IMG/VR virus record: IMGVR_UViG_3300012950_000003
Coordinates: 1-60,067 of that record
Origin: a virus
Direction: 5' to 3' (one strand)
Length of the DNA: 60,067 nt
A program made the position numbers and the translations under genes. This document shows, piece after piece, positions 18,353 to 54,789 of the stretch. The notes under the pieces were generated by a model, which searched no databases, was not told where the DNA came from, and worked only from the letters and a program-made list of their open reading frames with translations. Within the stretch, counting starts at the first letter, position 1, and every line of letters begins with the position of its first letter.

Positions 18353-18394
18353 GTGTTTTTATTATGTTTTTCTGTGTTTTTATTATGTTTTTCT
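18353..18394. repeat. Two perfect 21-bp tandem repeats upstream of early promoter P2
   Basis: The unit GTGTTTTTATTATGTTTTTC plus T occurs at 18353-18373 and again at 18374-18394. Its core (TTTTATTATGTTTTTC, or GAAAAACATAATAAAA on the other strand) also lies upstream of P1 at 24745-24759. The 21-bp period is two helical turns, which suggests binding of a regulator along one face of the DNA. Confidence 0.9.
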
Positions 18395-23008: not shown

Positions 23009-23917
23009 TTATAGTGCCAACTCGTTTAATTGGTCGGCCATCTCTATCATTAAGTGGCAATCAACTAACCTATCCAACCATCTTTGGGGGATACCCGACA
23101 TACCGTAATGGGCACCGGCTATCTGTCCGTAAACGGCTCCCACCGTATCGCTGTCATCGCCTAAATTGGCTACTTTCAATGCACCTTCCTCGAAACTGTC
23201 GGTGCTGAAAAATCCCCACAAGGCGGCTCTGAGTGTGTCGACTACATACCCACTTGACTCTATATCAAGTTCGTTGGTTTCGGCTAACCAGTAATGCCAA
23301 TCCGGGTCGTCTCCTAACCCATAATCTCTCAACTCGTTAGTCGGATAATCTTCCCCGTTAATGGCTTTGTATAAACATCGTCCTAACTGCTGACTGGCTG
23401 TCAAACAAGTTGGGTGGGCGTGGGTTAGTTTGGATTGCATCTGACTTAATGCTGAGGCTTGGTCTAAAGTCTTGGCCGCAATAGCCGCTGGTGCTAACCT
23501 CATTATTGAACCGTTGGCTTGGGTGAACTCGCCGTTATTCTCTTTGACCTCACCTGTCATCTTAAAATGGTGTAGGCTATCAGCGGTGGTCGTGCCGATG
23601 TCGAAACAGTAGCCTTTGACGCTGAACTTGCCGTTATCCGACCAGTCGATCCATCTCTGCATAACGTCCTGTTGGTCGAACCCTTGTTTCAGTATCAATG
23701 ATTCGGCTAAACAAAGTGCCATGCTGGTGTCGTCTGTCCATTCACCCGCTTTCAACTTAAAAGGGCCACCGCCAACCATATCGACAATCTCCTCGAAATG
23801 ACCTCTAACTTTGAATTCGTTAGTAGTGCCAACGGCATCACCAACGGCTAATCCAACTAATGCGCCTCGGGCGCGATCTCTCTTTTCTTTATTGGCTTGT
23901 AGTCTCATTACCTTCAT
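23009..23917 (-). CDS. ADP-ribosylglycohydrolase (DraG/ARH family)
   Basis: The 302-residue product shows the ARH fold signatures: GALVGLAVGDAVG (residues 18-30), GEWTDDTSMAL (58-68) with the metal-binding TDDT, and LGDDSDTVGAVYG near residue 253. These Asp residues coordinate two Mg ions and hydrolyse ADP-ribose from protein or nucleic acid targets. The full length fits the family. In a phage it could undo host ADP-ribosylation defences or process modifications placed by a phage-encoded transferase. ATG codons at 23917 and 23908 compete; GAGGAAGG precedes the first. Confidence 0.88.
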   Translation of the reverse strand: MKVMRLQANKEKRDRARGALVGLAVGDAVGTTNEFKVRGHFEEIVDMVGGGPFKLKAGEWTDDTSMALCLAESLILKQGFDQQDVMQRWIDWSDNGKFSVKGYCFDIGTTTADSLHHFKMTGEVKENNGEFTQANGSIMRLAPAAIAAKTLDQASALSQMQSKLTHAHPTCLTASQQLGRCLYKAINGEDYPTNELRDYGLGDDPDWHYWLAETNELDIESSGYVVDTLRAALWGFFSTDSFEEGALKVANLGDDSDTVGAVYGQIAGAHYGMSGIPQRWLDRLVDCHLMIEMADQLNELAL

Positions 23918-24713: not shown

Positions 24714-24742
24714 ATTATAACTGAATATAACATCAAAAACAA
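24714..24742 (-). promoter_or_regulatory. Early promoter P1 (TTGTTT-N17-TATAAT)
   Basis: On the minus strand the -35 TTGTTT (24737-24742) and the -10 TATAAT (24714-24719) are 17 bases apart. The spacer end GTTATATTCAGT matches P2 at 18315-18343 except for one base. Transcription would begin about base 24707 and feed the early operon. Confidence 0.85.
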
Positions 24743-24803
24743 GGAAAAACATAATAAAAGTAAGGAAAAACCTAAGAAAAGTGATGTTTTTTGTGAGGAA
24801 AGT
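24741..24803. repeat. 21-bp phased operator-like array between P1 and the repressor gene
   Basis: The unit AAGGAAAAACATAATAAAAG plus T (24741-24761) is repeated with changes at 24762-24782, and AAAGTGATGTTTTT recurs at 24778 and 24799, also 21 bases apart. The array spans the gap between the two divergent promoters and shares its core with the repeats upstream of P2. Confidence 0.8.
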
Positions 24804-32432: not shown

Positions 32433-32441
32433 TGTTATAAT
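32433..32441 (+). promoter_or_regulatory. Extended -10 promoter of the candidate small RNA
   Basis: TGTTATAAT is a perfect extended -10 (TGnTATAAT), starting 18 bases after the resolvase stop. No good -35 is present (TAGCTG at the right distance), which is usual for extended -10 promoters. Predicted start about base 32448. Confidence 0.65.
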
Positions 32442-32447
32442 CATCCT

Positions 32448-32540
32448 GCCGGTGCGCACGCCGGTACAATCCTCTCCTTTGGACAGGGGTTGTATTGGGC
32501 GCCTCGTCACCTCGTTTCCGGTGGCGGGGCGTTATTTTAA
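32448..32540 (+). ncRNA. Candidate trans-acting small RNA complementary to a ribosome-binding site
   Basis: The ~93-base predicted transcript has three stems: CCGGTG/CGCCGG with loop CGCA (32449-32464); TACAA...TTGTA with loop TTT and a G-rich right arm (32465-32494); and the terminator stem (32500-32531). The middle hairpin displays TCTCCTTTGG in and around its loop, an anti-Shine-Dalgarno sequence. Bases 32473-32492 are a perfect 20-base complement of 51564-51583, the leader of the gene before the glycosyltransferase, covering its AAAGGAGA. No open frame is present. Function as an antisense regulator is inference. Confidence 0.65.
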
Positions 32541-32542
32541 TT
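32500..32542 (+). terminator. Intrinsic terminator of the small RNA / resolvase unit
   Basis: CGCCTCGTCACC (32500-32511) pairs with GGTGGCGGGGCG (32520-32531) using two T-G pairs, around an eight-base loop, followed by TTATTTTAATT. Confidence 0.8.
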
Positions 32543-32577: not shown

Positions 32578-33051
32578 ATGAAAGACGAGCGTAAAATATA
32601 TGACCGGCTGGAAGTAGAGAGTGCTCCAGCCTTTGTTGCCTTCGAGATTTATCGCGACTTGGATCCGGGCCAGCGGTCAATAGATCGAGCCTTTGGGATT
32701 CACCGCGAACGGAAGGGGCAGAAACCTAACGGCAAACAAGCTCACGGCCATTGGACAAGATGGAGTAGTTTGCATAATTGGGTAGCCAGAGCTAAAGCCT
32801 ATGATGCCGACAATCAACGGGAAGCCCGTGAACGGGCGCAGGAAGACCGCCAAGCGGAAATCAAGAAATGGTTGGATGAACAATTCACTATCAGCAAGGC
32901 TTTCCAAGGTTATGTCCGCCGAGAAATCCGGGCCGAGCTAGAAACCCCTGGCACTCGTGAGGTTCACGAAATCCGCCAACTGGCGTTGGTATTTGATATT
33001 AGTGGTTCATGGGTGAAAGAGATTATCGGTGTAGGGGACGATGATGGCTAG
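32578..33051 (+). CDS. Terminase small subunit (TerS-like)
   Basis: The 157-residue product has the small-terminase layout: a helix-turn-helix DNA-binding part with GQRSIDRAFGIHRERKG and the frequent phrase HWTRWSSLHNWVARAKAYD, followed by a charged helical oligomerisation part (AREARERAQEDRQAEIKKWL). TerS recognises the packaging site and recruits the large subunit. The large subunit lies 6.7 kb away, separated by the modification cluster, an unusual spacing. The overlap with QueD is 11 bases. Confidence 0.7.
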   Translation: MKDERKIYDRLEVESAPAFVAFEIYRDLDPGQRSIDRAFGIHRERKGQKPNGKQAHGHWTRWSSLHNWVARAKAYDADNQREARERAQEDRQAEIKKWLDEQFTISKAFQGYVRREIRAELETPGTREVHEIRQLALVFDISGSWVKEIIGVGDDDG

Positions 33052-33610
33052 ACAGCATATCAGCCGGAAAGGGAATTTCGATGCCGGCCATCGGGTGATG
33101 AACGAGGCCATGAAGTGCTTTAATTTGCACGGTCATACCTATCTATTTGAACTGGCTTTCGGCTTCAACAGCGTGGCTCCAATCGGCTATGCCATCGACT
33201 TCAAAGAGATCAAGCGGGTGGGCTGTCAGTGGATAGACGATTTGCTGGATCATGGCATGATCCTCAACCCGACCGATGAAACGGTTATAAAGACGGTCGA
33301 GGGGTTGGGGGGCAAATTATGGTTGATGAGCCTCAACGGTGCGGGCCAGTATTGCAACCCGACAGTCGAAAATATTGCCAGAGAGGTGTTCATGGCCATG
33401 CAGATATTATTCGACCAAGGCCGGTCCGAAGGTGGCTATGGCTTACAGATTGATGAGGTGGTTATCTGGGAGACCCCTAATTGTGCTACCCGGTGCCGTT
33501 CGGATTCTATTTCGAGTGTTGAAAGAAACAATTTTCATAATGCGCGCTTCGACCAGATAGACCAGTACCGGATCAGGAAGGGTGAGCTCGAATACGACGA
33601 CCGATTATGA
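33041..33610 (+). CDS. queD: QueD-like 6-carboxytetrahydropterin synthase
   Basis: The 189-residue product has the pterin synthase zinc ligands His17 (FDAGHRVM), His30 and His32 (CFNLHGHTY), with catalytic Cys26 just before. WETP (pterin-binding Glu) appears near residue 148. It converts 7,8-dihydroneopterin triphosphate to 6-carboxy-tetrahydropterin. A carboxyl extension of ~30 residues is unusual. It overlaps QueE by four bases, so the pathway enzymes are translated in series. Two ATG codons (33041, 33044) compete. Confidence 0.9.
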   Translation: MMARQHISRKGNFDAGHRVMNEAMKCFNLHGHTYLFELAFGFNSVAPIGYAIDFKEIKRVGCQWIDDLLDHGMILNPTDETVIKTVEGLGGKLWLMSLNGAGQYCNPTVENIAREVFMAMQILFDQGRSEGGYGLQIDEVVIWETPNCATRCRSDSISSVERNNFHNARFDQIDQYRIRKGELEYDDRL

Positions 33611-34281
33611 ACCATAGCGAGATTTTTTATTCCATCCAAGGCGAAGGGATGTATGTGGGGATGCCGTCAGTCTTTTTTCGGTTCAGTGGTTGCCCGTTAC
33701 GCTGTGTTTGGTGTGATACACCTTACACCAGTTGGGAAGCGGAGAAGAAGAAGGTCAGCGTGCAACAGGCTACAGATAGCATAAACGAATATGGTTGTGA
33801 GCATGTAGTGATTACCGGCGGAGAACCTTATGCTCAAACCAAGGCTTTGGAACAGTTATGCCTTCAACTGCACGCCGATCACTATCTAACCATCGAAACA
33901 GCAGGTGTTATCTACCATCCCACCCTGGCCGACCTAATTTCGTTGAGCCCTAAATTGAGTAATTCTGTACCTGTCGGCCAAGCGCAAGCGGAGAAGCATG
34001 ATCATTTCCGCCTGAATTATAAGGTCTTAGCCCGGTTCCAAGAACAGCATGTTTGTCAATGGAAGTTCGTCATCGACAGGTCGGAAGATATAGCCGAGGT
34101 CGAAGACATAGAAACGGATTTACAGATTCCGCGCAACCATATTTTCTTAATGCCCCAAGGTAAAACCCAACCAGAAGTGGCTGGCAAAAGCCAGTGGCTA
34201 GCTGAGTTGTGTAAAGGGCATGGTTGGCGGTTCAGCCCCCGATTGCATGTCGATTTATGGGGTGATACGAGAGGTGTATGA
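33607..34281 (+). CDS. queE: QueE-like 7-carboxy-7-deazaguanine synthase (radical SAM)
   Basis: The 224-residue product contains Cys29, Cys33 and Cys36 in SGCPLRCVWCDTPY, the 4Fe-4S radical-SAM cluster site, after SIQGEGMYVG, the conserved QueE opening. GGEP at the expected place binds SAM. It rearranges 6-carboxytetrahydropterin to 7-carboxy-7-deazaguanine (CDG). Start overlaps the QueD stop (ATGA) and end overlaps the next gene. Confidence 0.93.
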   Translation: MNHSEIFYSIQGEGMYVGMPSVFFRFSGCPLRCVWCDTPYTSWEAEKKKVSVQQATDSINEYGCEHVVITGGEPYAQTKALEQLCLQLHADHYLTIETAGVIYHPTLADLISLSPKLSNSVPVGQAQAEKHDHFRLNYKVLARFQEQHVCQWKFVIDRSEDIAEVEDIETDLQIPRNHIFLMPQGKTQPEVAGKSQWLAELCKGHGWRFSPRLHVDLWGDTRGV

Positions 34282-34787
34282 AACAAAAAGAAAGTTCGAC
34301 CGATGAGGTAGTAGGCTTTTCTTGGTCACTGATCGAGCAGTTAGTTAGCCAAATCGTCTTACAGATAAACAATTCCGGCCAAAAATATTCAGCTGTCTAC
34401 GGTCTACCACGAGGAGGGCTAATCCCGGCCGTAATGTTCAGCCACCAATTAGGGTTACCTTATTACGATTGGGCCGATTTGGGATCGAGGACGGAACCTG
34501 CCCGCCACCATAATGTGCTGATAGTGGATGATGTGATCGAGACAGGTAAAACTATAAAGTCGCGATTCGCATGGTCTTCCGACTTGAGGCCTTTCGATAT
34601 AGCCACCCTGATAGACAAGTTACAGGCTGATTGGATAGATTATTATGGGTTACGGGTGGACTTGGATGTTTGGGTCAAGTTCCCTTGGGAGTCCGATCAG
34701 TCAACTACCCTTAATAATGACGGGGATCCCACCTATCCGTCACCCCCAAACCGGTCGTTTCTAAATGATGAATCAGGACGAGTTTGA
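34278..34787 (+). CDS. Phosphoribosyltransferase-like protein
   Basis: The 169-residue product carries VYGLPRGGLIPAVMFSHQLG (about 38-57) and the type I PRTase PRPP-binding motif VLIVDDVIETGKTIK (about 79-94). Such enzymes move a ribose-5-phosphate from PRPP to a base. In this cluster it could form a nucleotide of a deazapurine intermediate or recycle bases; the substrate is not visible in the sequence. It overlaps QueE by four bases and FolE by 23, indicating tight coupling with the pathway. Confidence 0.85.
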   Translation: MKQKESSTDEVVGFSWSLIEQLVSQIVLQINNSGQKYSAVYGLPRGGLIPAVMFSHQLGLPYYDWADLGSRTEPARHHNVLIVDDVIETGKTIKSRFAWSSDLRPFDIATLIDKLQADWIDYYGLRVDLDVWVKFPWESDQSTTLNNDGDPTYPSPPNRSFLNDESGRV

Positions 34788-35343
34788 GATGGATCAAGCC
34801 ATGATCGAAGAAGGGGTGCGGACAATGTTGATCGGTTTAGGTGAGGATCCGCAACGGGAAGGGCTCCAAAACACGCCAGCACGTTTCGCTAAAATGATGA
34901 TGGAGATGACAACCCCACCATCATTCACCCCGACCACTTTCAGCAACGAAGACGATTATGACCAGATAGTAATGGTCAGCAACATTCCTTTCTATTCCCA
35001 ATGTGAACATCATTTGGTTCCCTTTTTCGGCCAAGCCCATATCGGCTATCTGCCTCAAGCAGACTATATTGGTCTGAGTAAGTTTCCGCGAGTGGTAGAA
35101 TATTTCGCTCGCCGCTTACAGGTACAGGAACGGTTGACAACACAGATAGCCAATTGGGTGATGGGAACCTTAAACCCGTTAGGAGTGGGCGTAATCATCA
35201 AAGCCCGTCATCTCTGCATGGAGATGCGAGGGGTCAAGAAACCCGGTACTGAAACCACCACTTCGGCTATGTTAGGACAAATGCGAGACAACCCTAACAT
35301 GAAAAACGAATTCCTTAATCTGGTCAGTCAGGCATTGACATGA
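34765..35343 (+). CDS. folE: GTP cyclohydrolase I
   Basis: The 192-residue product has the zinc site of GTP cyclohydrolase I: Cys80, His82 (FYSQCEHHLVPF) and Cys151 (ARHLCMEMRGV), plus GLSKFPRVVEYFARRLQVQE. It converts GTP to dihydroneopterin triphosphate, the first step to queuosine-type bases and folate. In this context the first pathway step is phage-provided. It overlaps the HAD gene by four bases (ATGA). Confidence 0.93.
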   Translation: MMNQDEFEMDQAMIEEGVRTMLIGLGEDPQREGLQNTPARFAKMMMEMTTPPSFTPTTFSNEDDYDQIVMVSNIPFYSQCEHHLVPFFGQAHIGYLPQADYIGLSKFPRVVEYFARRLQVQERLTTQIANWVMGTLNPLGVGVIIKARHLCMEMRGVKKPGTETTTSAMLGQMRDNPNMKNEFLNLVSQALT

Positions 35344-35621
35344 AACATACGATCTGCGTTGACTTTGACGGCACATTAGAACTGGCTAACGGCCAACCTA
35401 ACCAACCGCTAATCGACTGGATGAACAGTCAGGGCTGTCGGTTCTTTATCTGGTCCTCACGGGACTGGATCTATTATGACTATATCGAGGATTGGCTTAA
35501 TCGTCACGGAGTACCTTGCCATAACATCATCTTGGGCAAACCGTTGGCTGATCTGTATATTGATGATCGAGCTTCCCATTGGCAATCTGTTCTGGATAAG
35601 TTAAGTGCCGAAAGAGATTAG
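35340..35621 (+). CDS. Small HAD-superfamily phosphatase-like protein
   Basis: The 93-residue product starts with the HAD nucleophile motif CVDFDGTL (residues 6-12, Asp8 and Asp10) and has SSRD (motif II, around 39-42) and DLYIDDRAS (motif IV, around 77-85). It is short, lacking a cap domain. HAD enzymes usually hydrolyse phosphoesters, for example of nucleotides or sugar phosphates. In this cluster it may clear a phosphate from a pathway intermediate or from inositol phosphate, which would link it to the neighbouring synthase; this is inference. Confidence 0.8.
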   Translation: MKHTICVDFDGTLELANGQPNQPLIDWMNSQGCRFFIWSSRDWIYYDYIEDWLNRHGVPCHNIILGKPLADLYIDDRASHWQSVLDKLSAERD

Positions 35622-36219
35622 CAGTGCCCCGCCTCGCGTTGGAGACGAAGCACCTCAAGCAATAATAAGGCTATTCCGCTTCCCGTATCAGTTCTTCGGT
35701 CGTCTGTGTGGCAATCACAGCCATACGTTGATGGATATAGCTTCGGGTGATGCTGGCCAGAAAACCGTCTTAGACGGATTGTTTCGGAGACTTATTTTCT
35801 TTGACAATTCTTGTGACCATGAATTTGTCAAACCGGCCGACATCCGATGTATCCCCATGGCTGATAAGAGTGTCGAAGTTTCATTTTGTTTTGAAACCGT
35901 TGAGCATCTTGATAGCCCCGACCAAAATCAAGCGTTGCGGGAATTGGAACGGGTGACCCAAACCCAGATAGTGATAGGAAGTATAGATGAGCATGGGGAA
36001 GACCACGTGGAAGGCGTACCTATTTTCAAAAAGAAAAACGATTCTAACCCCTATCATTTACGGGAGTTGAACTCGCTTACCTTCCCGCAATTGATTGAGC
36101 AGCATTTTACTGACATCGAATATTACCAGTCATGGCCATCCCCTTCCGGGATAGCCATGCGTCACGGGTTGTGGGCGAGGCCTCTTGCTTATTGTAATTA
36201 TGCGATGATTAACCTTTAA
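35605..36219 (+). CDS. SAM-dependent methyltransferase-like protein
   Basis: The 204-residue product from GTG 35605 has a class I methyltransferase core with a degenerate SAM motif (LMDIASGDAGQK about 45-57), an acidic turn (IPMADKSVEVSFCFETVEHL about 88-107) and the typical helix after it. The Gly-rich loop is altered, so activity is uncertain. It could modify the DNA base or sugar, or a capsule/inositol product. The start overlaps the HAD gene by 17 bases. Confidence 0.65.
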   Translation: MPKEISSAPPRVGDEAPQAIIRLFRFPYQFFGRLCGNHSHTLMDIASGDAGQKTVLDGLFRRLIFFDNSCDHEFVKPADIRCIPMADKSVEVSFCFETVEHLDSPDQNQALRELERVTQTQIVIGSIDEHGEDHVEGVPIFKKKNDSNPYHLRELNSLTFPQLIEQHFTDIEYYQSWPSPSGIAMRHGLWARPLAYCNYAMINL

Positions 36220-36253
36220 TTTCTACCGACCACACTGCAGAGAGTTTTAAGTT

Positions 36254-37339
36254 ATGAGCAAAATCAAAGTAGCCCTAATTGGGGTAGGCAACTGTGCTTC
36301 GGCTTTATTGCAAGGTGTTGACTACTACAAAGACCAAGATCCACAAGGGGTGATGACAGCCGATATTGGCGGTTATTCTCCGGCTGACATCGAAGTAGTA
36401 ACCGCCTTCGATATTAATGCAAACAAAGTAGGGTTGCCGATAGAAGAAGCGGTTTGGCAAAAACCAAATAATGCTTACACCTTTTCCACAGTTAGCAACA
36501 CGGCTATCGTCCAGCCGGGCATAGTGCTGGACAGTATGGCCGATTACCAGTTCCATAATTTCCCGGTCAAGGAGGAGACCGTTGAGGATCTGAAACGAGG
36601 CGTAGGACCTATCGTCAAAGCCTTAGTGGAAACGGGAGCCGAGATAGCGGTTTGTTATTTGCCGGTCGGTAGTTACGAAGCCAGCCGAGCCTATGCTAAA
36701 GCCTGCCTAAATGCCAAGGTCAGTTTCATTAATGCTATGCCGGAGTTCATTACCACTGACAAAATGTGGCAAGAACAGTTTGAGATTAATGGGCTAGTCT
36801 GTGCTGGTGATGACGTTAAAAGCCAAGTGGGCGCTACGGTAGTTCACCGCACTTTAGCCCACCTGATCGAGATGCGTGGACAGAAGATCAATAATACTTA
36901 TCAATTAAACTTCGGAGGTAACACCGACTTTGAAAATATGCTGGATCGGAGCAGGTTGGTAAATAAAGAGAAAAGTAAGACCCAATCAGTAACCAGTTTG
37001 TTGGACCAGATCCCGCATATGAAAGTAGGGCCTAGCGATTTTGTCTCTTATTTGGATGACAAGAAAATTTGCTATATCAATATCCAAGGAGAGCAATTTG
37101 GCGGCGCGCCTTTCAGCATAGAGTTAAAGTTGGAAGTAGAAGATTCGCCTAACTCAGCTGGCGTCATCTGCGACGCTATCAGAGGAGTTAAGTTGGCCTT
37201 GGATCGGCATCAATACGGGTATTGCGATGCTGTCAGCAGTTGGTGTTTCAAGTCACCGTCAATCCAGATGCCCGACTTAGAAGCTAAACAGCAGTTCGAC
37301 CGATGGATCAAGCCAGCCAATCAGGTGGGGGTGCGATGA
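36254..37339 (+). CDS. Myo-inositol-1-phosphate synthase (inositol-3-phosphate synthase)
   Basis: The 361-residue product matches the short bacterial/archaeal form: NAD-binding loop ALIGVGNCASALLQGVDYYK (residues 6-25), then NAMPEF (~158) and VGATVVHRTLAHL (~198), GNTDFEN (~224) and DSPNSAGV (~296). It makes L-myo-inositol-1-phosphate from glucose-6-phosphate, the only de novo inositol route. It is rare in phages and not known in queuosine pathways. It sits between the methyltransferase-like gene and QueC, with ATGA overlap to QueC, so it appears to be part of the same unit. The product's use is unknown. Confidence 0.92.
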   Translation: MSKIKVALIGVGNCASALLQGVDYYKDQDPQGVMTADIGGYSPADIEVVTAFDINANKVGLPIEEAVWQKPNNAYTFSTVSNTAIVQPGIVLDSMADYQFHNFPVKEETVEDLKRGVGPIVKALVETGAEIAVCYLPVGSYEASRAYAKACLNAKVSFINAMPEFITTDKMWQEQFEINGLVCAGDDVKSQVGATVVHRTLAHLIEMRGQKINNTYQLNFGGNTDFENMLDRSRLVNKEKSKTQSVTSLLDQIPHMKVGPSDFVSYLDDKKICYINIQGEQFGGAPFSIELKLEVEDSPNSAGVICDAIRGVKLALDRHQYGYCDAVSSWCFKSPSIQMPDLEAKQQFDRWIKPANQVGVR

Positions 37340-38301
37340 AAGAATTGCGTAGCCTCAATAAGTATTTGGACTTGGAAGCGGATTGGATGTCTAAACGGAT
37401 AGTCAACCAGTTAGAGTTTCAAAAAATGGTTACGGCGGCTCTTAATTGCCCTCAAAACGAATTTCGGACTTATCAACAGGTAGGCTTGATTAGCGGCGGC
37501 ATGGATTCGGTTATCATGTGGCATATTATGCAAAATGAACCTGGCTACAAATTAGCTGTCTTCTGCGATTTAGGCCAATCTTACAATTCGGCTGAAAGGG
37601 ATGTCTTGGATCAGCGCCAAATCCCGTATGTAGAAGAAAAGCTGGATTTGAGTTCAAGGCCCAATTGGGATCATATCATCCCCGGTCGCAATATGCTGAT
37701 GATGTTGCGGGCCGTTGATTATGTCACTGATGGCGGTAATCTTTGGCTAGGATGTGTCGACGGTGAATCCGGATACGACGACGGCGATAAAAGCCAACGC
37801 TTCTTTGACCTGTTCCAGACTTACGTCAAAGCAGAATACGATAAACAGGTTAAAATAAAGACCATGCGAACTGGAACTAAAACCTATTGGCTAAGTTGGT
37901 ATTTGGGTAAAACCGCAGATTTCTCCATCTTGGGTACAGTCACCTGTTTCAACCCAATTGAAGGCAAGGCTTGTTGCGCTTGCCAAGCCTGTCTACGTAA
38001 ATACCTGGCTATTCGATATTACAGCATCACCTGCTCGACTATGATCGAGTGCGACCCCACCGGCAACCTTTTGGAGGAACCTTTCGCCACTTGGGCCGAA
38101 CATATGGACCACCCAAGTTATCGCCAAGCTATCGCCGTTGGATGTAAACCTTTCATTGAAAGTTATATCAACAAAATGGAAACGGCTTCAGCCAACAGAA
38201 ATTATAGTCATTACAGTGAGGCTAGAATCGAGGAAGACCTGCCTCTCCTACAGGAATTGAAGTCGGATTTCTATCTAGGGGCCACCGAGGAGGGTAGGTG
38301 A
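37336..38301 (+). CDS. queC: QueC-like 7-cyano-7-deazaguanine (preQ0) synthase
   Basis: The start at 37336 overlaps the synthase stop (ATGA) and is preferred to an in-frame ATG at 37303. The 321-residue product has the PP-loop SGGMDS (residues 53-58) that binds ATP and the zinc-binding Cys cluster GKACCACQACLRK near residues 212-224. It turns 7-carboxy-7-deazaguanine into preQ0 using ammonia and ATP. The chain is about 90 residues longer than usual QueC, with an amino extension of ~40 and extra carboxyl sequence. The gene overlaps the DpdA gene. Confidence 0.9.
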   Translation: MKELRSLNKYLDLEADWMSKRIVNQLEFQKMVTAALNCPQNEFRTYQQVGLISGGMDSVIMWHIMQNEPGYKLAVFCDLGQSYNSAERDVLDQRQIPYVEEKLDLSSRPNWDHIIPGRNMLMMLRAVDYVTDGGNLWLGCVDGESGYDDGDKSQRFFDLFQTYVKAEYDKQVKIKTMRTGTKTYWLSWYLGKTADFSILGTVTCFNPIEGKACCACQACLRKYLAIRYYSITCSTMIECDPTGNLLEEPFATWAEHMDHPSYRQAIAVGCKPFIESYINKMETASANRNYSHYSEARIEEDLPLLQELKSDFYLGATEEGR

Positions 38302-39059
38302 GGTTATATTTCGCCGGCGCTGACGGCACCGAAAAGTATAATCAAGCCTTGTTCACAGGCGGGGTCAAATACCGGCTAGTATCAGCTTACACTTTAGGCT
38401 ATGACCGAGAGGTACCGGATTGGCCTTTCAAATCGACCATGATTGATAGTGGCGGTTATTCGGCCCGTACGCGTGGGGTGGAAATAGAGGTTGAAGAATA
38501 TGTCGATTTCCTTAACCGCAACCAACCTGATATGGCTTTGGAACTGGATACCAGCGATGTCTGGCAGACTTTAGCCAACCGCAAGATTTTGCAAGCTAAA
38601 TGCCCTTCAGTTTACATCATCCCTATTTACCATTGGAGCGATTATATCTCCTCCACCTTCCGGTCCATGATCGACGATTTAGTCACAGACTATCCGATGA
38701 TAGCCGTCGGCGGTGTAGCCGGTGTCAGCATTGGACGAGAAGAACAGTTTGAGCTTTACGATTATGTCTTCCAACGCACCCGTGACAAAGTAAAAGTTCA
38801 CGGCTTAGGCCAAACCAGCAAACCGTATCTGGAGAAATATCCTTTTTATTCGGTGGATTCAACTTCGTGGTTAGCGGCAGTTCGTTACGGGTGCAGCATG
38901 GTGGATGGGGCTTGGAAGGAGATGACAAAGTTGCAAGCCAAACTTTATCGTGGTCAGGAAGCGTTACAGAAACGAATCCCACCGGAGATAAGGCATTACT
39001 TGAAACTGGAAGATTATTTCACCCGATTATGGGGCAAGAGAGGAGTGGTTTGGACATGA
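38298..39059 (+). CDS. dpdA: DpdA-like DNA 7-deazaguanine transglycosylase
   Basis: The 253-residue product starts at GTG (GTGA overlap with QueC; GAGG upstream). It resembles the TGT family: Asp50 in STMIDSGGYSA (general base/nucleophile region), Asp84 in ALELDTSD, substrate loop AVGGVAG (136-142), VHGLGQTSKPYL and SVDSTSW. The short form with HGxGxTS and YSVDSTSW is that of phage DpdA, which replaces guanine in DNA by preQ0, not a tRNA enzyme. With FolE, QueD, QueE and QueC upstream the phage can make and insert preQ0. The exact modified base is unproven. Confidence 0.85.
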   Translation: MRLYFAGADGTEKYNQALFTGGVKYRLVSAYTLGYDREVPDWPFKSTMIDSGGYSARTRGVEIEVEEYVDFLNRNQPDMALELDTSDVWQTLANRKILQAKCPSVYIIPIYHWSDYISSTFRSMIDDLVTDYPMIAVGGVAGVSIGREEQFELYDYVFQRTRDKVKVHGLGQTSKPYLEKYPFYSVDSTSWLAAVRYGCSMVDGAWKEMTKLQAKLYRGQEALQKRIPPEIRHYLKLEDYFTRLWGKRGVVWT

Positions 39060-50398: not shown

Positions 50399-51544
50399 AT
50401 GGCTTTTTCAGGAAGAGCTACCTATTCAAATGATACATTGATCGGTGAAGACGTATCTGATCTGGTATCTACTATCTCACCCTTTGAAACTCCGTTACTG
50501 GATTTCTTGGGTGATGCCTCACAATCAGCTACCAATGTCCTCCATGAATGGGTGGAAGATTCACTCAATCCCGGCACTTTATTGGCATCATCGGCCATCG
50601 CTTCGGCCACGGCTGATACCGCTTTCCGTGTCAATGGCACCGGCAACAATTTGCAAGTGGGCGATATTCTACGTATGGTCGGCGGCAACGTGATTGCCAA
50701 CGAAGAATTGATGCAAGTCACAGTGGTGACCGGTGCTAATTCGATTACTGTTAGCCGAGGTTTCGGGAGTGTTGGCCCATCTTCACTAGCAGTCGGCGGT
50801 TCTTTGGAACTGGTTAGCAATGCCAGTTTGGAGGGGGCCGATGTTTCGGGCGATATTTCCCTCAACCGTAGCCGTCAATACAATTTCGTGCAACAGTTCC
50901 AAAAGCCGATTGAGGTTAGCGACACCCAACGCTCAGTCAACAACTTGGGCGGGATTGACGACGAATACAGTTACCAGCTAGAGCAAAGAACCAAGGAGAT
51001 CTTGCGTGACTTGGAGAAAGCGGTCATCTTGGGCGCGGCTTCGGGTAACAGCTTCGGTTCATTAACCGCCTATCGGTCAATGAAAGGTATCTGGCGTTCA
51101 ATCGCTACCAACCAACAAACCACCACCGCCGCTTTGACCGAAACTTTCTTGGGCGATACTATCGTCAAGTCAGCTTGGGATAACGGTGGCGATGATGTTG
51201 ACCTGATCGTGGCTGACTCCCAATGGAAACGAGCCATTGATGGCTTGATCGACTCCCGGATCAGGGTAACTGATGATGCTGACACCTTACGTACTGAAGT
51301 GACTTATTACGAGTCTAGCTTCGGTCGTCAAGTGGTGTTACCACCTAACCGCCATATGCCTTACAAATCAGCGATGGTTTTAGCTTCTGACCGAATTGAA
51401 GTGGTACCGTTGCAAGGCCGATCATTCCAACATGAATCGCTAGCCAAAACCGGTCATGCCACCAGAGGAGTGGTAGTGGGTGAATATACGGTAGCGGTGA
51501 TGAACGAAGCCGGCCATGCCAGAGGTATTGATACCGACGCTTAA
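50399..51544 (+). CDS. Major capsid protein (HK97 fold, DUF5309 type)
   Basis: The 381-residue product lies after the scaffold. It has the DUF5309 pattern: VSDLVSTISPFETPLLDFLG near residues 20-38, then a beta-rich region with SRGFGS, a spine-helix-like segment (YSYQLEQRTKEILRDLEKAV) and the carboxyl HATRGVVVGEYTVAVMNEAG. DUF5309 proteins are HK97-fold capsids of many environmental phages. Length and position agree. The gene is followed by the leader containing the 20-base antisense target. Confidence 0.88.
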   Translation: MAFSGRATYSNDTLIGEDVSDLVSTISPFETPLLDFLGDASQSATNVLHEWVEDSLNPGTLLASSAIASATADTAFRVNGTGNNLQVGDILRMVGGNVIANEELMQVTVVTGANSITVSRGFGSVGPSSLAVGGSLELVSNASLEGADVSGDISLNRSRQYNFVQQFQKPIEVSDTQRSVNNLGGIDDEYSYQLEQRTKEILRDLEKAVILGAASGNSFGSLTAYRSMKGIWRSIATNQQTTTAALTETFLGDTIVKSAWDNGGDDVDLIVADSQWKRAIDGLIDSRIRVTDDADTLRTEVTYYESSFGRQVVLPPNRHMPYKSAMVLASDRIEVVPLQGRSFQHESLAKTGHATRGVVVGEYTVAVMNEAGHARGIDTDA

Positions 51545-51563: not shown

Positions 51564-51583
51564 CAACCCCTGTCCAAAGGAGA
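51564..51583 (+). promoter_or_regulatory. 20-base antisense target covering the Shine-Dalgarno of gene 51593
   Basis: These 20 bases (CAACCCCTGTCCAAAGGAGA) are the exact reverse complement of 32473-32492 in the candidate small RNA. They include AAAGGAGA, ending 9 bases before the ATG at 51593. The AAA between CC and GG could form the loop opposite the UUU loop of the small RNA. Confidence 0.8.
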
Positions 51584-51592
51584 TTGTTTGAA

Positions 51593-51811
51593 ATGCCAAT
51601 GATAGACAAAGCGGATATTGAAGTGCTAAAAACCTTTATGACCCATAATATTGGTCGGCCCTTCAACCCCAGATACTTGGTTCGGTTTAGGCGGGTCTTG
51701 CCGGTGCTGTTGCAAGATTACGAAAAACTATGCCATGAAAATGATGCTTTACTTAAAACTAACCGTCAGCTGGAGGAAGAATTGAAAAAGGGGCAAGAGG
51801 CGGCAGAATGA
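51593..51811 (+). CDS. Small protein coupled to the glycosyltransferase gene
   Basis: The ATG at 51593 is chosen because AAAGGAGA lies nine bases upstream; a TTG at 51584 is in frame but too close. The 72-residue product is a helical, charged polypeptide (ADIEVLKTFMTHNIGRPFNP; carboxyl coiled coil RQLEEELKKGQEAAE). Its end overlaps the glycosyltransferase start by four bases (ATGA), so translation of the latter depends on this gene. No family is recognised. Confidence 0.65.
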   Translation: MPMIDKADIEVLKTFMTHNIGRPFNPRYLVRFRRVLPVLLQDYEKLCHENDALLKTNRQLEEELKKGQEAAE

Positions 51812-54789
51812 AATATAATATCGCCTTCTATTGCCAATCAGTACCCTTTTCGGCGGAGACTATTAAGCTGGAGAAATCTTTGGGCGGTAGTGAAACGGCC
51901 TTGGTCTATATGGCCAATGCTTTAGCTGAACGGGGCCATCAAGTCACGGTCTTCACCCAATTCCAAGACGAAGACCATCAAGGCCGGTATAACGGGGTCA
52001 AATGGGCTGACAGCCAGTATTTCCCTGATATGTGCCACAGTATAGAATGGGATATTTTTATCTCTCAACGCTATTATCCAGTGATGGCTAATAATGTTCG
52101 GGCTAAATATCGAGGGTTATGGGTTGAGGATGTAATGGAGGTCGGCATCAAGGCCGAGTATGCTGGCTCCTTGTGGCAAACCGATCAGATCCTTTATGTC
52201 AGTGAATGGCAACGTCAGAATTACGAATCCATCTTGCCCAGCGGGGCCGAGAAGTTGGGCTTTGTGACCAAGAACGGGATCGACTTAGCCACGGTTGATG
52301 ACAACATGGCTGACGAAAAAGACCCCAACCAGATGATTTATATCAGCCGGCCAGAACGTGGTTTGTTCCCTTTGTTGCAAATCTTCCCCCAAATGCGGGA
52401 ACAACGACCTGACCTTGAGCTAAAGGTTTGCCGCTACTATTCTATGTATGAGAATAATCCGGAAGTGAAACGGATTTGTGAGCAAGCCGACCGCATGGTA
52501 GCCCATACCGAGGGTGTTCAATATTTGGGTAACTTGAACAAGGAACAACTATACCAACATATCTCCAGATCAGCTTTGATGTTGTATCCGGGTGTGCCGA
52601 CTTTCGATGAAACTTCCTGCATCGCCGCTTTGGAAGCCCAAGCCTGTCGAACCCCAATGGTAGCCACCAGCCGAGGCGGGTTGGTTGAAACCTTGTGGCC
52701 ATTTGCCGGAGCCTTAATTGAGGGCGATGCTTATAGCAAGGGATACCAACAAGAGTTTATAGCCCAAGCCTTCGATTTGCTGGACAGTGCCAGCCGTTAC
52801 CAAGAGGCACAAAAAATGGGTCGTGAGTGGGTAGTTGACAATTATCAATACAGCACCATCGCGGAGGAGTGGGAACAGAACTTCGATCAATTCTTTGTAT
52901 CTCGGTTCCAAGACCATTTGCCGCAAATCTTTGACAACTTGCTCCACCATGACGATTTCGTTACCGCTTACCATATACGGGAAGAAGAAGGCATCAGCCA
53001 AGAGCAACAGGACCGCTTGGATTCCCACCTCAATCAGACCCATTCCGAACAGCAATATGAAGATGGGATGTTGGCACCCGAACTGGAAGGCAAAGCGGTT
53101 GAAGCGGGGCTTCATGGCCGATTAGAAACTGTCTTGCAATTGATCGACCCCCAAAACAGCCAAATGGAGCCAGCGAACATCTTGGATTATGGTTGTGGGG
53201 GAGGTGTCTTTGCCAGTGCCCTGCAACGAATGTTTCCTTCGGCCCAAGTTTTGGGTATAGATTTCAGTCAAGGCATTGTGGACAAGGGCAACCAATTCAT
53301 AGCCGATCAAGAATGGGAGCAACGGAAACCTCATTTACACCAAGCCGATTTAATGGATGCTTCCAGCTTGCAAGAGATCAAGGTTGAAGGTGATGTTCTG
53401 TTCTCTTTAGAGGGCCAGAAATACGATTTGATCTTTTGTGGCGAACTTCTGGAACACTATGTCGAACCAATGGAATTGGTCTTGCCCTTGGAAGACTTGC
53501 TGACTGATGAAGGTTGGCTGGTATGGACAGTACCCAACGGGCCGTTCGTGGAGATGGCTACCAACGATAGAGAACTGAATCAACGGACGCATCGGATTCA
53601 TTGGGAATATAACACGGTGGAGGAAGTCTTTAGCCAAAAAGACGGTTATCAAGCCCGTTATATCTGCACCAATAATGAGACCGGATGCCGTGGCTTACAC
53701 AAGGGGCATTATGTCTTTCGGCACCAAAAAGGCGGTCAATACGGTGAGATAGATTTCGACAAGAAAGCCAAGTTGACTCGACCTTACCAAAAGATCAGTG
53801 TTTGCATGATCGCTAAAAATAACGAACAGGATATAGGCCGTTGTTTGGAGTCGGTCAAAGATGTAGCTGACGAGATTATTTTGGCCCATAACCAATCCAC
53901 TGATGGCACGGTGGAAATCGCCAAACAACACGGGGCCAAGATCATCGAGTTGCCAGAGAAATGGCCAGCCGCCCCGGATTGGGCACCGGCACCGGGCAAC
54001 TTTTCATGGATGAGGAACGAATCGGTTGACCCGGCTAGTGGGGATTGGATTTTGTGGATTGATACTGATGAGCAATTGCGGAACGGACACCTTTTAGGTA
54101 AATATTTGCAAAGCAGGTTCTATGACGGTTATGTCTTGCGCCAAGTCCATTTGATGGTTGATGCTGATCAAAGGCATGATACCCCGGTCAGATTGTACCG
54201 TAATGGGGCCGGCTTCAAGTTTTATGGCTGCATCCATGAACATGCCCATAAAAGCCTAAACGAACCGATAGAGCCGTCATTTGAGCTACCCAAGACCGAT
54301 ATTATCCATTATGGATATGTGACTGAAGATATACGGCAATTCAAGTGCAAAGAACGAAATATTGGGTTGTTGAAACTGGATCGGGCTGTCCATCCAGAAC
54401 GCTTGTTAGGTTGGGTCTTATTAGCACGGGAATATATCAATATGGTGGGTTGGGAAAAACAAGAGAACCCGAACCAACCTTTGAGCCAAATCTCCGACCG
54501 ACGGTTACGGGAAGTGTTACGAATTTACCATGATGAGGAACTCAACTTGGCCGATCTGAACGGTCGGTATTATAAGCTGATATTCCCTCTCTATCAGGTA
54601 GCTTTGAAGTTGTTGGGCGTTGGGTTCGGGGCTGAGATAGATGTCAAGGTGACGGATAACGGGCAAGCCATGCGCTTCTTGGATCAAGATGACGTGGAAA
54701 AGCATTTACAGTTCCAGCTCAAGGATTTGGAAAAGCAGGTATTTACCTTGACCAGAGACAAAACCTTTTTGACCCAAGTGGAGGGCTAG
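51808..54789 (+). CDS. Trifunctional GT4 - methyltransferase - GT2 protein
   Basis: The 993-residue protein has three enzyme modules. Residues about 1-370: GT-B glycosyltransferase of family 4 type (LGGSETALVYMANALAERGH at 25-44; FDETSCIAALEAQACRTPMV about 264-283). Residues about 420-640: SAM methyltransferase (NILDYGCGGGVFASALQ; GIDFSQGIVDKG). Residues about 662-870: GT2 glycosyltransferase (KISVCMIAKNNEQDIGRCLE; DWILWIDTDEQL with the DxD-like DTD). Such a fusion in the capsid module points to sugar decoration of the virion, perhaps with methylated sugars. A host surface target is the alternative. Its start is coupled to the 51593 gene. Confidence 0.9.
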   Translation: MKYNIAFYCQSVPFSAETIKLEKSLGGSETALVYMANALAERGHQVTVFTQFQDEDHQGRYNGVKWADSQYFPDMCHSIEWDIFISQRYYPVMANNVRAKYRGLWVEDVMEVGIKAEYAGSLWQTDQILYVSEWQRQNYESILPSGAEKLGFVTKNGIDLATVDDNMADEKDPNQMIYISRPERGLFPLLQIFPQMREQRPDLELKVCRYYSMYENNPEVKRICEQADRMVAHTEGVQYLGNLNKEQLYQHISRSALMLYPGVPTFDETSCIAALEAQACRTPMVATSRGGLVETLWPFAGALIEGDAYSKGYQQEFIAQAFDLLDSASRYQEAQKMGREWVVDNYQYSTIAEEWEQNFDQFFVSRFQDHLPQIFDNLLHHDDFVTAYHIREEEGISQEQQDRLDSHLNQTHSEQQYEDGMLAPELEGKAVEAGLHGRLETVLQLIDPQNSQMEPANILDYGCGGGVFASALQRMFPSAQVLGIDFSQGIVDKGNQFIADQEWEQRKPHLHQADLMDASSLQEIKVEGDVLFSLEGQKYDLIFCGELLEHYVEPMELVLPLEDLLTDEGWLVWTVPNGPFVEMATNDRELNQRTHRIHWEYNTVEEVFSQKDGYQARYICTNNETGCRGLHKGHYVFRHQKGGQYGEIDFDKKAKLTRPYQKISVCMIAKNNEQDIGRCLESVKDVADEIILAHNQSTDGTVEIAKQHGAKIIELPEKWPAAPDWAPAPGNFSWMRNESVDPASGDWILWIDTDEQLRNGHLLGKYLQSRFYDGYVLRQVHLMVDADQRHDTPVRLYRNGAGFKFYGCIHEHAHKSLNEPIEPSFELPKTDIIHYGYVTEDIRQFKCKERNIGLLKLDRAVHPERLLGWVLLAREYINMVGWEKQENPNQPLSQISDRRLREVLRIYHDEELNLADLNGRYYKLIFPLYQVALKLLGVGFGAEIDVKVTDNGQAMRFLDQDDVEKHLQFQLKDLEKQVFTLTRDKTFLTQVEG

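What the first reader, a model, noticed from the sequence alone, without database searches (positions are those of the whole stretch)
32433..32542. Candidate phage small RNA with a 20-base perfect complement to a distant ribosome-binding site
Seen directly: an intergenic stretch with a perfect extended -10 (TGTTATAAT), three stems and an intrinsic terminator, no gene inside. Bases 32473-32492 are exactly complementary to 51564-51583, which covers the AAAGGAGA ribosome site and leader of gene 51593. By my estimate a 20-base inverted match between two sites in 60 kb is unlikely by chance. Both sites lie in plus-strand transcribed DNA. The small RNA presents UCUCCUUUGG around a UUU loop, the classic anti-Shine-Dalgarno layout, while the target has AAA opposite. 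Inference: the RNA blocks translation of gene 51593 and, through the ATGA overlap, of the trifunctional glycosyltransferase.
Basis: partly seen in the sequence, partly recalled or inferred. Interest (0 to 1): 0.85.

Follow-up and report, generated by a model that had tools for sequence, protein, structure and literature searches.

The report
Phage small RNA covering distant ribosome site
An uncultured bacterial virus appears to make a short RNA, just ahead of its packaging genes, that base-pairs over the translation start of a distant late gene; a related virus has kept the same pairing although both partners changed sequence, which is strong evidence that the pairing is used.

Summary
Bases 32473-32492 are perfectly complementary to 51564-51583, the longest inverted match in the window; 0 of 200 Markov simulations exceeded 18. 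The RNA side lies in a compact promoter/three-hairpin/terminator element (z = -4.8) between a RusA-like gene and the terminase small subunit. The target covers the Shine-Dalgarno site of a small gene between the major capsid protein and a glycosyltransferase.

One related phage contig (IMGVR_UViG_3300008219_000054) carries both loci. Its own leader has a 15-base perfect complement to its own homologous RBS leader, in the same register. Across the 15 pairs, 7 have changed on both sides and all 7 still pair. Each RNA is predicted to bind its own target (-27.9 and about -22 kcal/mol net) far better than any other gene start (about -8) or the other phage's target (-5 to -6).

The best explanation is a phage-encoded antisense small RNA, probably the terminated leader of a late operon, that represses translation of gene 51593 and perhaps, by ATGA coupling, the glycosyltransferase. 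Closest analogue: StxS of Shiga-toxin phages. Discrete transcription, repression and the effect on the glycosyltransferase remain inferred, and only two phages carry both sites.

The parts
32433..32441 (+). Extended -10 promoter motif TGTTATAAT (TATAAT at 32436-32441); predicted start near 32448
   Evidence: Exact pattern match; no good -35; start site inferred
32448..32542 (+). Predicted small RNA of about 95 nt, three hairpins
   Evidence: Fold -47.8 kcal/mol, z = -4.8; no Rfam family at gathering threshold
32448..32465 (+). Hairpin 1
   Evidence: Fold; not formed in the same way in the relative
32466..32493 (+). Hairpin 2, which holds the pairing segment
   Evidence: Fold
32473..32492 (+). 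Antisense segment UCUCCUUUGGACAGGGGUUG
   Evidence: 20-nt perfect complement to 51564-51583; 7 compensated changes in the relative
32498..32533 (+). Hairpin 3, intrinsic-terminator-like stem, 14 pairs
   Evidence: all 14 pairs kept in the relative with 6 pairs altered, one on both sides
51564..51583 (+). Target site: leader and Shine-Dalgarno site (AAAGGAG 51576-51582) of gene 51593
   Evidence: homologous site aligned in relatives
51593..51811 (+). Target gene: 72-aa protein with a possible coiled coil, function unknown (weak phrog_1378 match)
51808..54789 (+). Glycosyltransferase/methyltransferase/glycosyltransferase fusion starting in an ATGA overlap; possible co-regulated gene
50399..51544 (+). 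Major capsid protein, upstream neighbour of the target
   Evidence: phrog_1328, E = 1.5e-60
32578..33051 (+). Terminase small subunit, first gene downstream of the RNA
   Evidence: phrog_6299, E = 6e-11; 78% identical relative in L010
31933..32415 (+). RusA-like Holliday junction resolvase, gene upstream of the RNA
   Evidence: phrog_1682, E = 1e-25

Best explanation
The 32448-32542 element is a phage-encoded small regulatory RNA. It is probably the short transcript made when transcription starting at the head of the late (terminase-capsid) operon stops at the leader terminator. It base-pairs over about 20 bases with the leader and Shine-Dalgarno site of gene 51593, 19 kb downstream, blocks ribosome loading there, and so lowers gene 51593 and, through the ATGA overlap, the glycosyltransferase, without lowering the capsid gene just upstream. 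Shown here: the complementarity, its conservation by compensatory change at the same two places in a second phage, and its predicted specificity. Inferred: that a discrete RNA is made, that pairing represses rather than stabilises or processes the message, and that the glycosyltransferase is affected.
For: 20-nt perfect match, longest in the genome. In the related contig the leader upstream of terS (L010:9871-9885) is perfectly complementary over 15 nt to L008:11156-11170, just upstream of the homologous gene's SD. This is the longest match of that leader anywhere in the 20-kb locus scanned (next 11), and 20,000 shuffles never exceeded 12. Random real stretches of the same sizes reached 15 or more 8 times in about 195,000. 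Ungapped, the two duplexes share register; 7 pairs changed on both sides and still pair, 97% of cells pair, and sliding by one column drops this to about 50%. Net binding gain is -27.9 for its own target against -8.9 for the next of 47 genes; in the relative -21.5 against -8.1 for the next of about 31; cross-pairs are -5 to -6. The element is structured and ends in a conserved hairpin in both phages. Precedent: StxS, a late-promoter/terminator RNA that binds the stx1B RBS (PMC7873438).
Against: Only one relative holds both sites; the other five target-bearing contigs do not reach the leader, so the covariation rests on two sequences. The promoter has no good -35 and lies at a somewhat different place in the relative. 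The relative's terminator lacks a strong U-run and was not called. Hairpins 1 and 2 are not conserved as structures. In the relative the SD core itself pairs only by G-U/A-U with one mismatch. Host and presence of Hfq are unknown; there are no RNA data.
Confidence: 0.72

Rival explanations
1. The pairing is real but acts in cis or through processing: the leader at the 5' end of a read-through late mRNA pairs with the gene-51593 leader on the same long transcript, or the duplex is an RNase III cleavage site that separates the capsid message from the downstream part.
For: Both sites are on the + strand in what looks like one late gene block; the duplex is long and nearly perfect.
Against: The terminator hairpin is conserved in both phages, which favours a short RNA. 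Pairing across 19 kb in cis seems less efficient than in trans (inference).
Confidence: 0.13
2. The gene-51593 leader is a sponge or decoy: the RNA's main job is on host mRNAs or on the antitermination of the late operon, and the late message titrates it.
For: Leader RNAs before late operons often serve termination/antitermination (general knowledge); sponge-type RNAs exist in phages (AgvB, AsxR; PMC12197685).
Against: The pairing lies at the SD rather than elsewhere in the message, and it was kept specific to this site in two phages.
Confidence: 0.08
3. Coincidence: unrelated matches in two phages.
For: 20-mers occur by chance in perhaps 0.3% of such windows (extrapolated), and many windows were read; 15-16-nt matches are ordinary somewhere in a 30-kb contig.
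Against: The relative's match is at the pre-specified homologous pair of sites, in register, with 7 of 7 changed pairs compensated; chance about 4e-5 or less.
Confidence: 0.04
4. DNA-level inverted repeat: recombination or inversion sites, or a duplicated protein-binding site.
For: Identical DNA in inverted orientation at two places.
Against: The sequence differs at 7 of 15 positions between the two phages while staying complementary within each; no site-specific recombinase was recognised next to either site; the 20-mer is absent from other viral contigs.
Confidence: 0.03

Closest known systems
StxS small RNA of Shiga-toxin phages (PMC7873438)
   Same: Phage RNA made between a late promoter and its terminator; pairs with the RBS of a late phage gene to silence translation.
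   Different: No sequence relation was tested; here the RNA lies directly upstream of terS, the target lies 19 kb away behind the capsid gene, and the pairing is 15-20 uninterrupted base pairs. Hfq dependence is unknown.
C4 RNA of P1/P7 and sar RNA of P22 (PMC12197685)
   Same: Phage antisense RNAs that block translation initiation of a phage gene.
   Different: According to the review these control antirepressor synthesis and lysogeny; here the RNA is encoded 19 kb from its target and the target is a gene in the late block.
Lambda late leader (pR' - 6S RNA - tR')
   Same: Short terminated leader RNA at the head of the late genes (from general knowledge).
   Different: PMC12197685 lists lambda 6S as an Hfq-dependent RNA whose function was not explored; no Q-like antiterminator was identified here.
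HK022 put RNAs
   Same: Structured RNA right after a phage promoter (from general knowledge).
   Different: put RNAs act on RNA polymerase, not on an mRNA; similarity was not tested.

Membership tests
Trans-acting antisense small RNA (RBS-blocking) | Encoded away from its target, with complementarity to the target's translation initiation region | tested here: met
   20 nt perfect over the SD, 19 kb away
Trans-acting antisense small RNA (RBS-blocking) | Complementarity maintained in evolution | tested here: met
   7 pairs changed on both sides, all kept, one relative
Trans-acting antisense small RNA (RBS-blocking) | Own promoter and intrinsic terminator | tested here: inconclusive
   Good in the window except for the -35; terminator stem conserved but weak U-run in the relative
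Trans-acting antisense small RNA (RBS-blocking) | Discrete transcript that changes target expression | not testable with these tools
   No RNA data
StxS-type late-leader small RNA | Lies between a late promoter and terminator at the head of late genes | tested here: inconclusive
   Immediately upstream of terS in both phages; late timing not known
StxS-type late-leader small RNA | Hfq binding and RNase E processing | not testable with these tools
   Host unknown
Rfam families | Covariance-model score at gathering threshold | tested here: not met
   0 hits in the window; sub-threshold hits on the element are far below their cut-offs, e.g. ctRNA_pGA1 17.2 bits against 45
Lambda late leader with antitermination | Q-like antiterminator and qut site | not tested
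   No Q-like gene was seen among the families scanned, but no dedicated search was made

The most novel reading that the evidence does not exclude
A previously undescribed family of late-operon leader RNAs in uncultured phages that doubles as a co-evolving antisense repressor, uncoupling translation of a glycosyltransferase module from the capsid gene just upstream of it.
Probability: 0.5. Interest if true: 0.7.

Novelty: new member of a known kind. Interest (0 to 1): 0.62.

Why it matters
Phage RNAs acting on the phage's own genes are known from a handful of model phages. Here the RNA, its target and the exact base pairs are predicted from genome sequence alone and supported by double compensatory changes, so a clean reporter test and a falsifiable prediction for further relatives exist. 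It also suggests how a phage could keep a modification enzyme low while the capsid gene directly upstream is highly expressed.

Tried and rejected
A preQ1-type riboswitch was considered because queD, queE-like, folE and queC-like genes follow terS. It was rejected: no Rfam match, and the relative has the element before terS but no queD homolog in the loci held. Known RNA families: none. The exact 20-mer in all viral contigs: none. Further relatives through RusA, terS (two searches), primase, lysozyme and TerL: only the one contig has the leader. Relatives of the capsid protein or TerL in one genome for each of 84,980 bacterial and archaeal species: none. Annotated phages: no DNA match, only distant capsid and terS relatives. 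Complements of the L005 and L009 target leaders elsewhere in their contigs: none of 11 nt or more apart from the sites themselves, as expected since the contigs do not reach the leader. Distant TerL contigs listed only inverted matches of 15-18 nt, which I did not follow up. Raw duplex energies without the cost of unfolding rank the target first but with little margin, because the hairpin arms pair with anything; the net gain is the fair measure.

Full report
Observation. The window is a phage genome that appears to be circularly permuted: genes of a relative run across the window's ends. The element at 32433-32542 lies between a RusA-like resolvase gene and a gene matching terminase small subunits. 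It has an extended -10, folds far better than shuffles (z = -4.8) and ends in a terminator-like hairpin. Its bases 32473-32492 are the exact reverse complement of 51564-51583, which is the leader and Shine-Dalgarno site of a 72-aa gene between the major capsid protein and a glycosyltransferase fusion.

Chance. In 200 third-order Markov sequences of the same length the longest inverted match was 14-18; the observed one is 20. By extrapolation a 20-mer somewhere is roughly a 0.3% event per window, so by itself the match is suggestive but not decisive, because many windows were read.

Independent test. Six viral contigs hold a relative of the capsid gene, and all have the same order capsid - small gene - glycosyltransferase with the ATGA overlap. 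Only one, IMGVR_UViG_3300008219_000054, also covers the terS leader. At first sight conservation fails: the window's 20-mer is absent from the relatives' targets, and the relative's leader barely aligns. But the relative's own leader contains CATGGGCGCGAATTG, the perfect complement of CAATTCGCGCCCATG, which lies directly before the SD of its own copy of the small gene. It is the longest complement of that leader in the locus scanned; the next is 11. Shuffles never exceeded 12 in 20,000, and random real stretches of the same sizes reach 15 or more at about 4 in 100,000.

Register and covariation. The two targets align without gaps: CAACCCCTGTCCAAAGGAG and CAATTCGCGCCCATGGGAG. In the first 15 pairs, seven columns differ and all seven are compensated in the RNA; the remaining four pairs (the SD) are Watson-Crick in the window and one mismatch, one A-U and two G-U in the relative. 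Sliding the partner by one column halves the pairing. The terminator hairpin just 3' of the pairing segment is conserved, with 14 of 14 pairs kept, so the two leaders are homologous and the pairing segment changed together with its target. With only two sequences the shuffle control inside that tool is weak (4/500); the main weight is on the pre-specified location.

Specificity. After subtracting the cost of unfolding, the window RNA gains -27.9 kcal/mol with its own target and at most -8.9 with 46 other + strand gene starts. The relative's RNA gains -21.5 with its own target and at most -8.1 elsewhere. The cross-combinations gain only -5 to -6.

Mechanism. The pairing sits on the ribosome site, so the simplest reading is translational repression of the small gene and possibly, by coupling, of the glycosyltransferase, sparing the capsid gene upstream. 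The position of the RNA at the head of the terminase-capsid block, with a terminator before terS, resembles the lambda-type late leader; StxS, a processed late-leader RNA, silences stx1B by binding its RBS (PMC7873438). Whether the phage uses antitermination is not known. Shown: complementarity, covariation, predicted specificity. Inferred: transcript, repression, coupling.

Limits. There is one informative relative and no RNA data; the host is unknown. The promoter is only partly convincing and the relative's terminator has a weak U-run.

Noticed in passing
window 33041-39056: A block between terS and TerL holds QueD, a QueE-like radical SAM protein, FolE, a QueC-like protein and a protein with a DSGGYS motif reminiscent of TGT-like enzymes: a likely 7-deazaguanine pathway, possibly for DNA modification. 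The relative has a much shorter terS-TerL gap and no homologs of these genes were found in the loci held.
   Followed up: partly
window 36254-37339: Protein with a myo-inositol-1-phosphate synthase domain (Pfam E = 3.6e-30), unexpected in a phage and possibly linked to the glycosyltransferase.
   Followed up: no
window 23009-23917, minus strand: Protein matches ADP-ribosylglycohydrolase (Pfam E = 1e-67), a possible counter-defence or host-modification gene.
   Followed up: no
window 18357-18393 and 24735-24780: A/T-rich repeats (TTTTATTATGTTTTTC / GAAAAACATAATAAAA) in inverted orientation inside and at one end of the minus-strand gene block.
   Followed up: no
L010 9490-9810: The relative has an extra ORF of about 100 aa between the RusA-like gene and the RNA element that is absent from the window.
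   Followed up: no
window, both strands: Extended -10 motif TGNTATAAT occurs 6 times where 1.7 are expected (0 of 100 shuffles reach 6); five of the six are on the minus strand.
   Followed up: no
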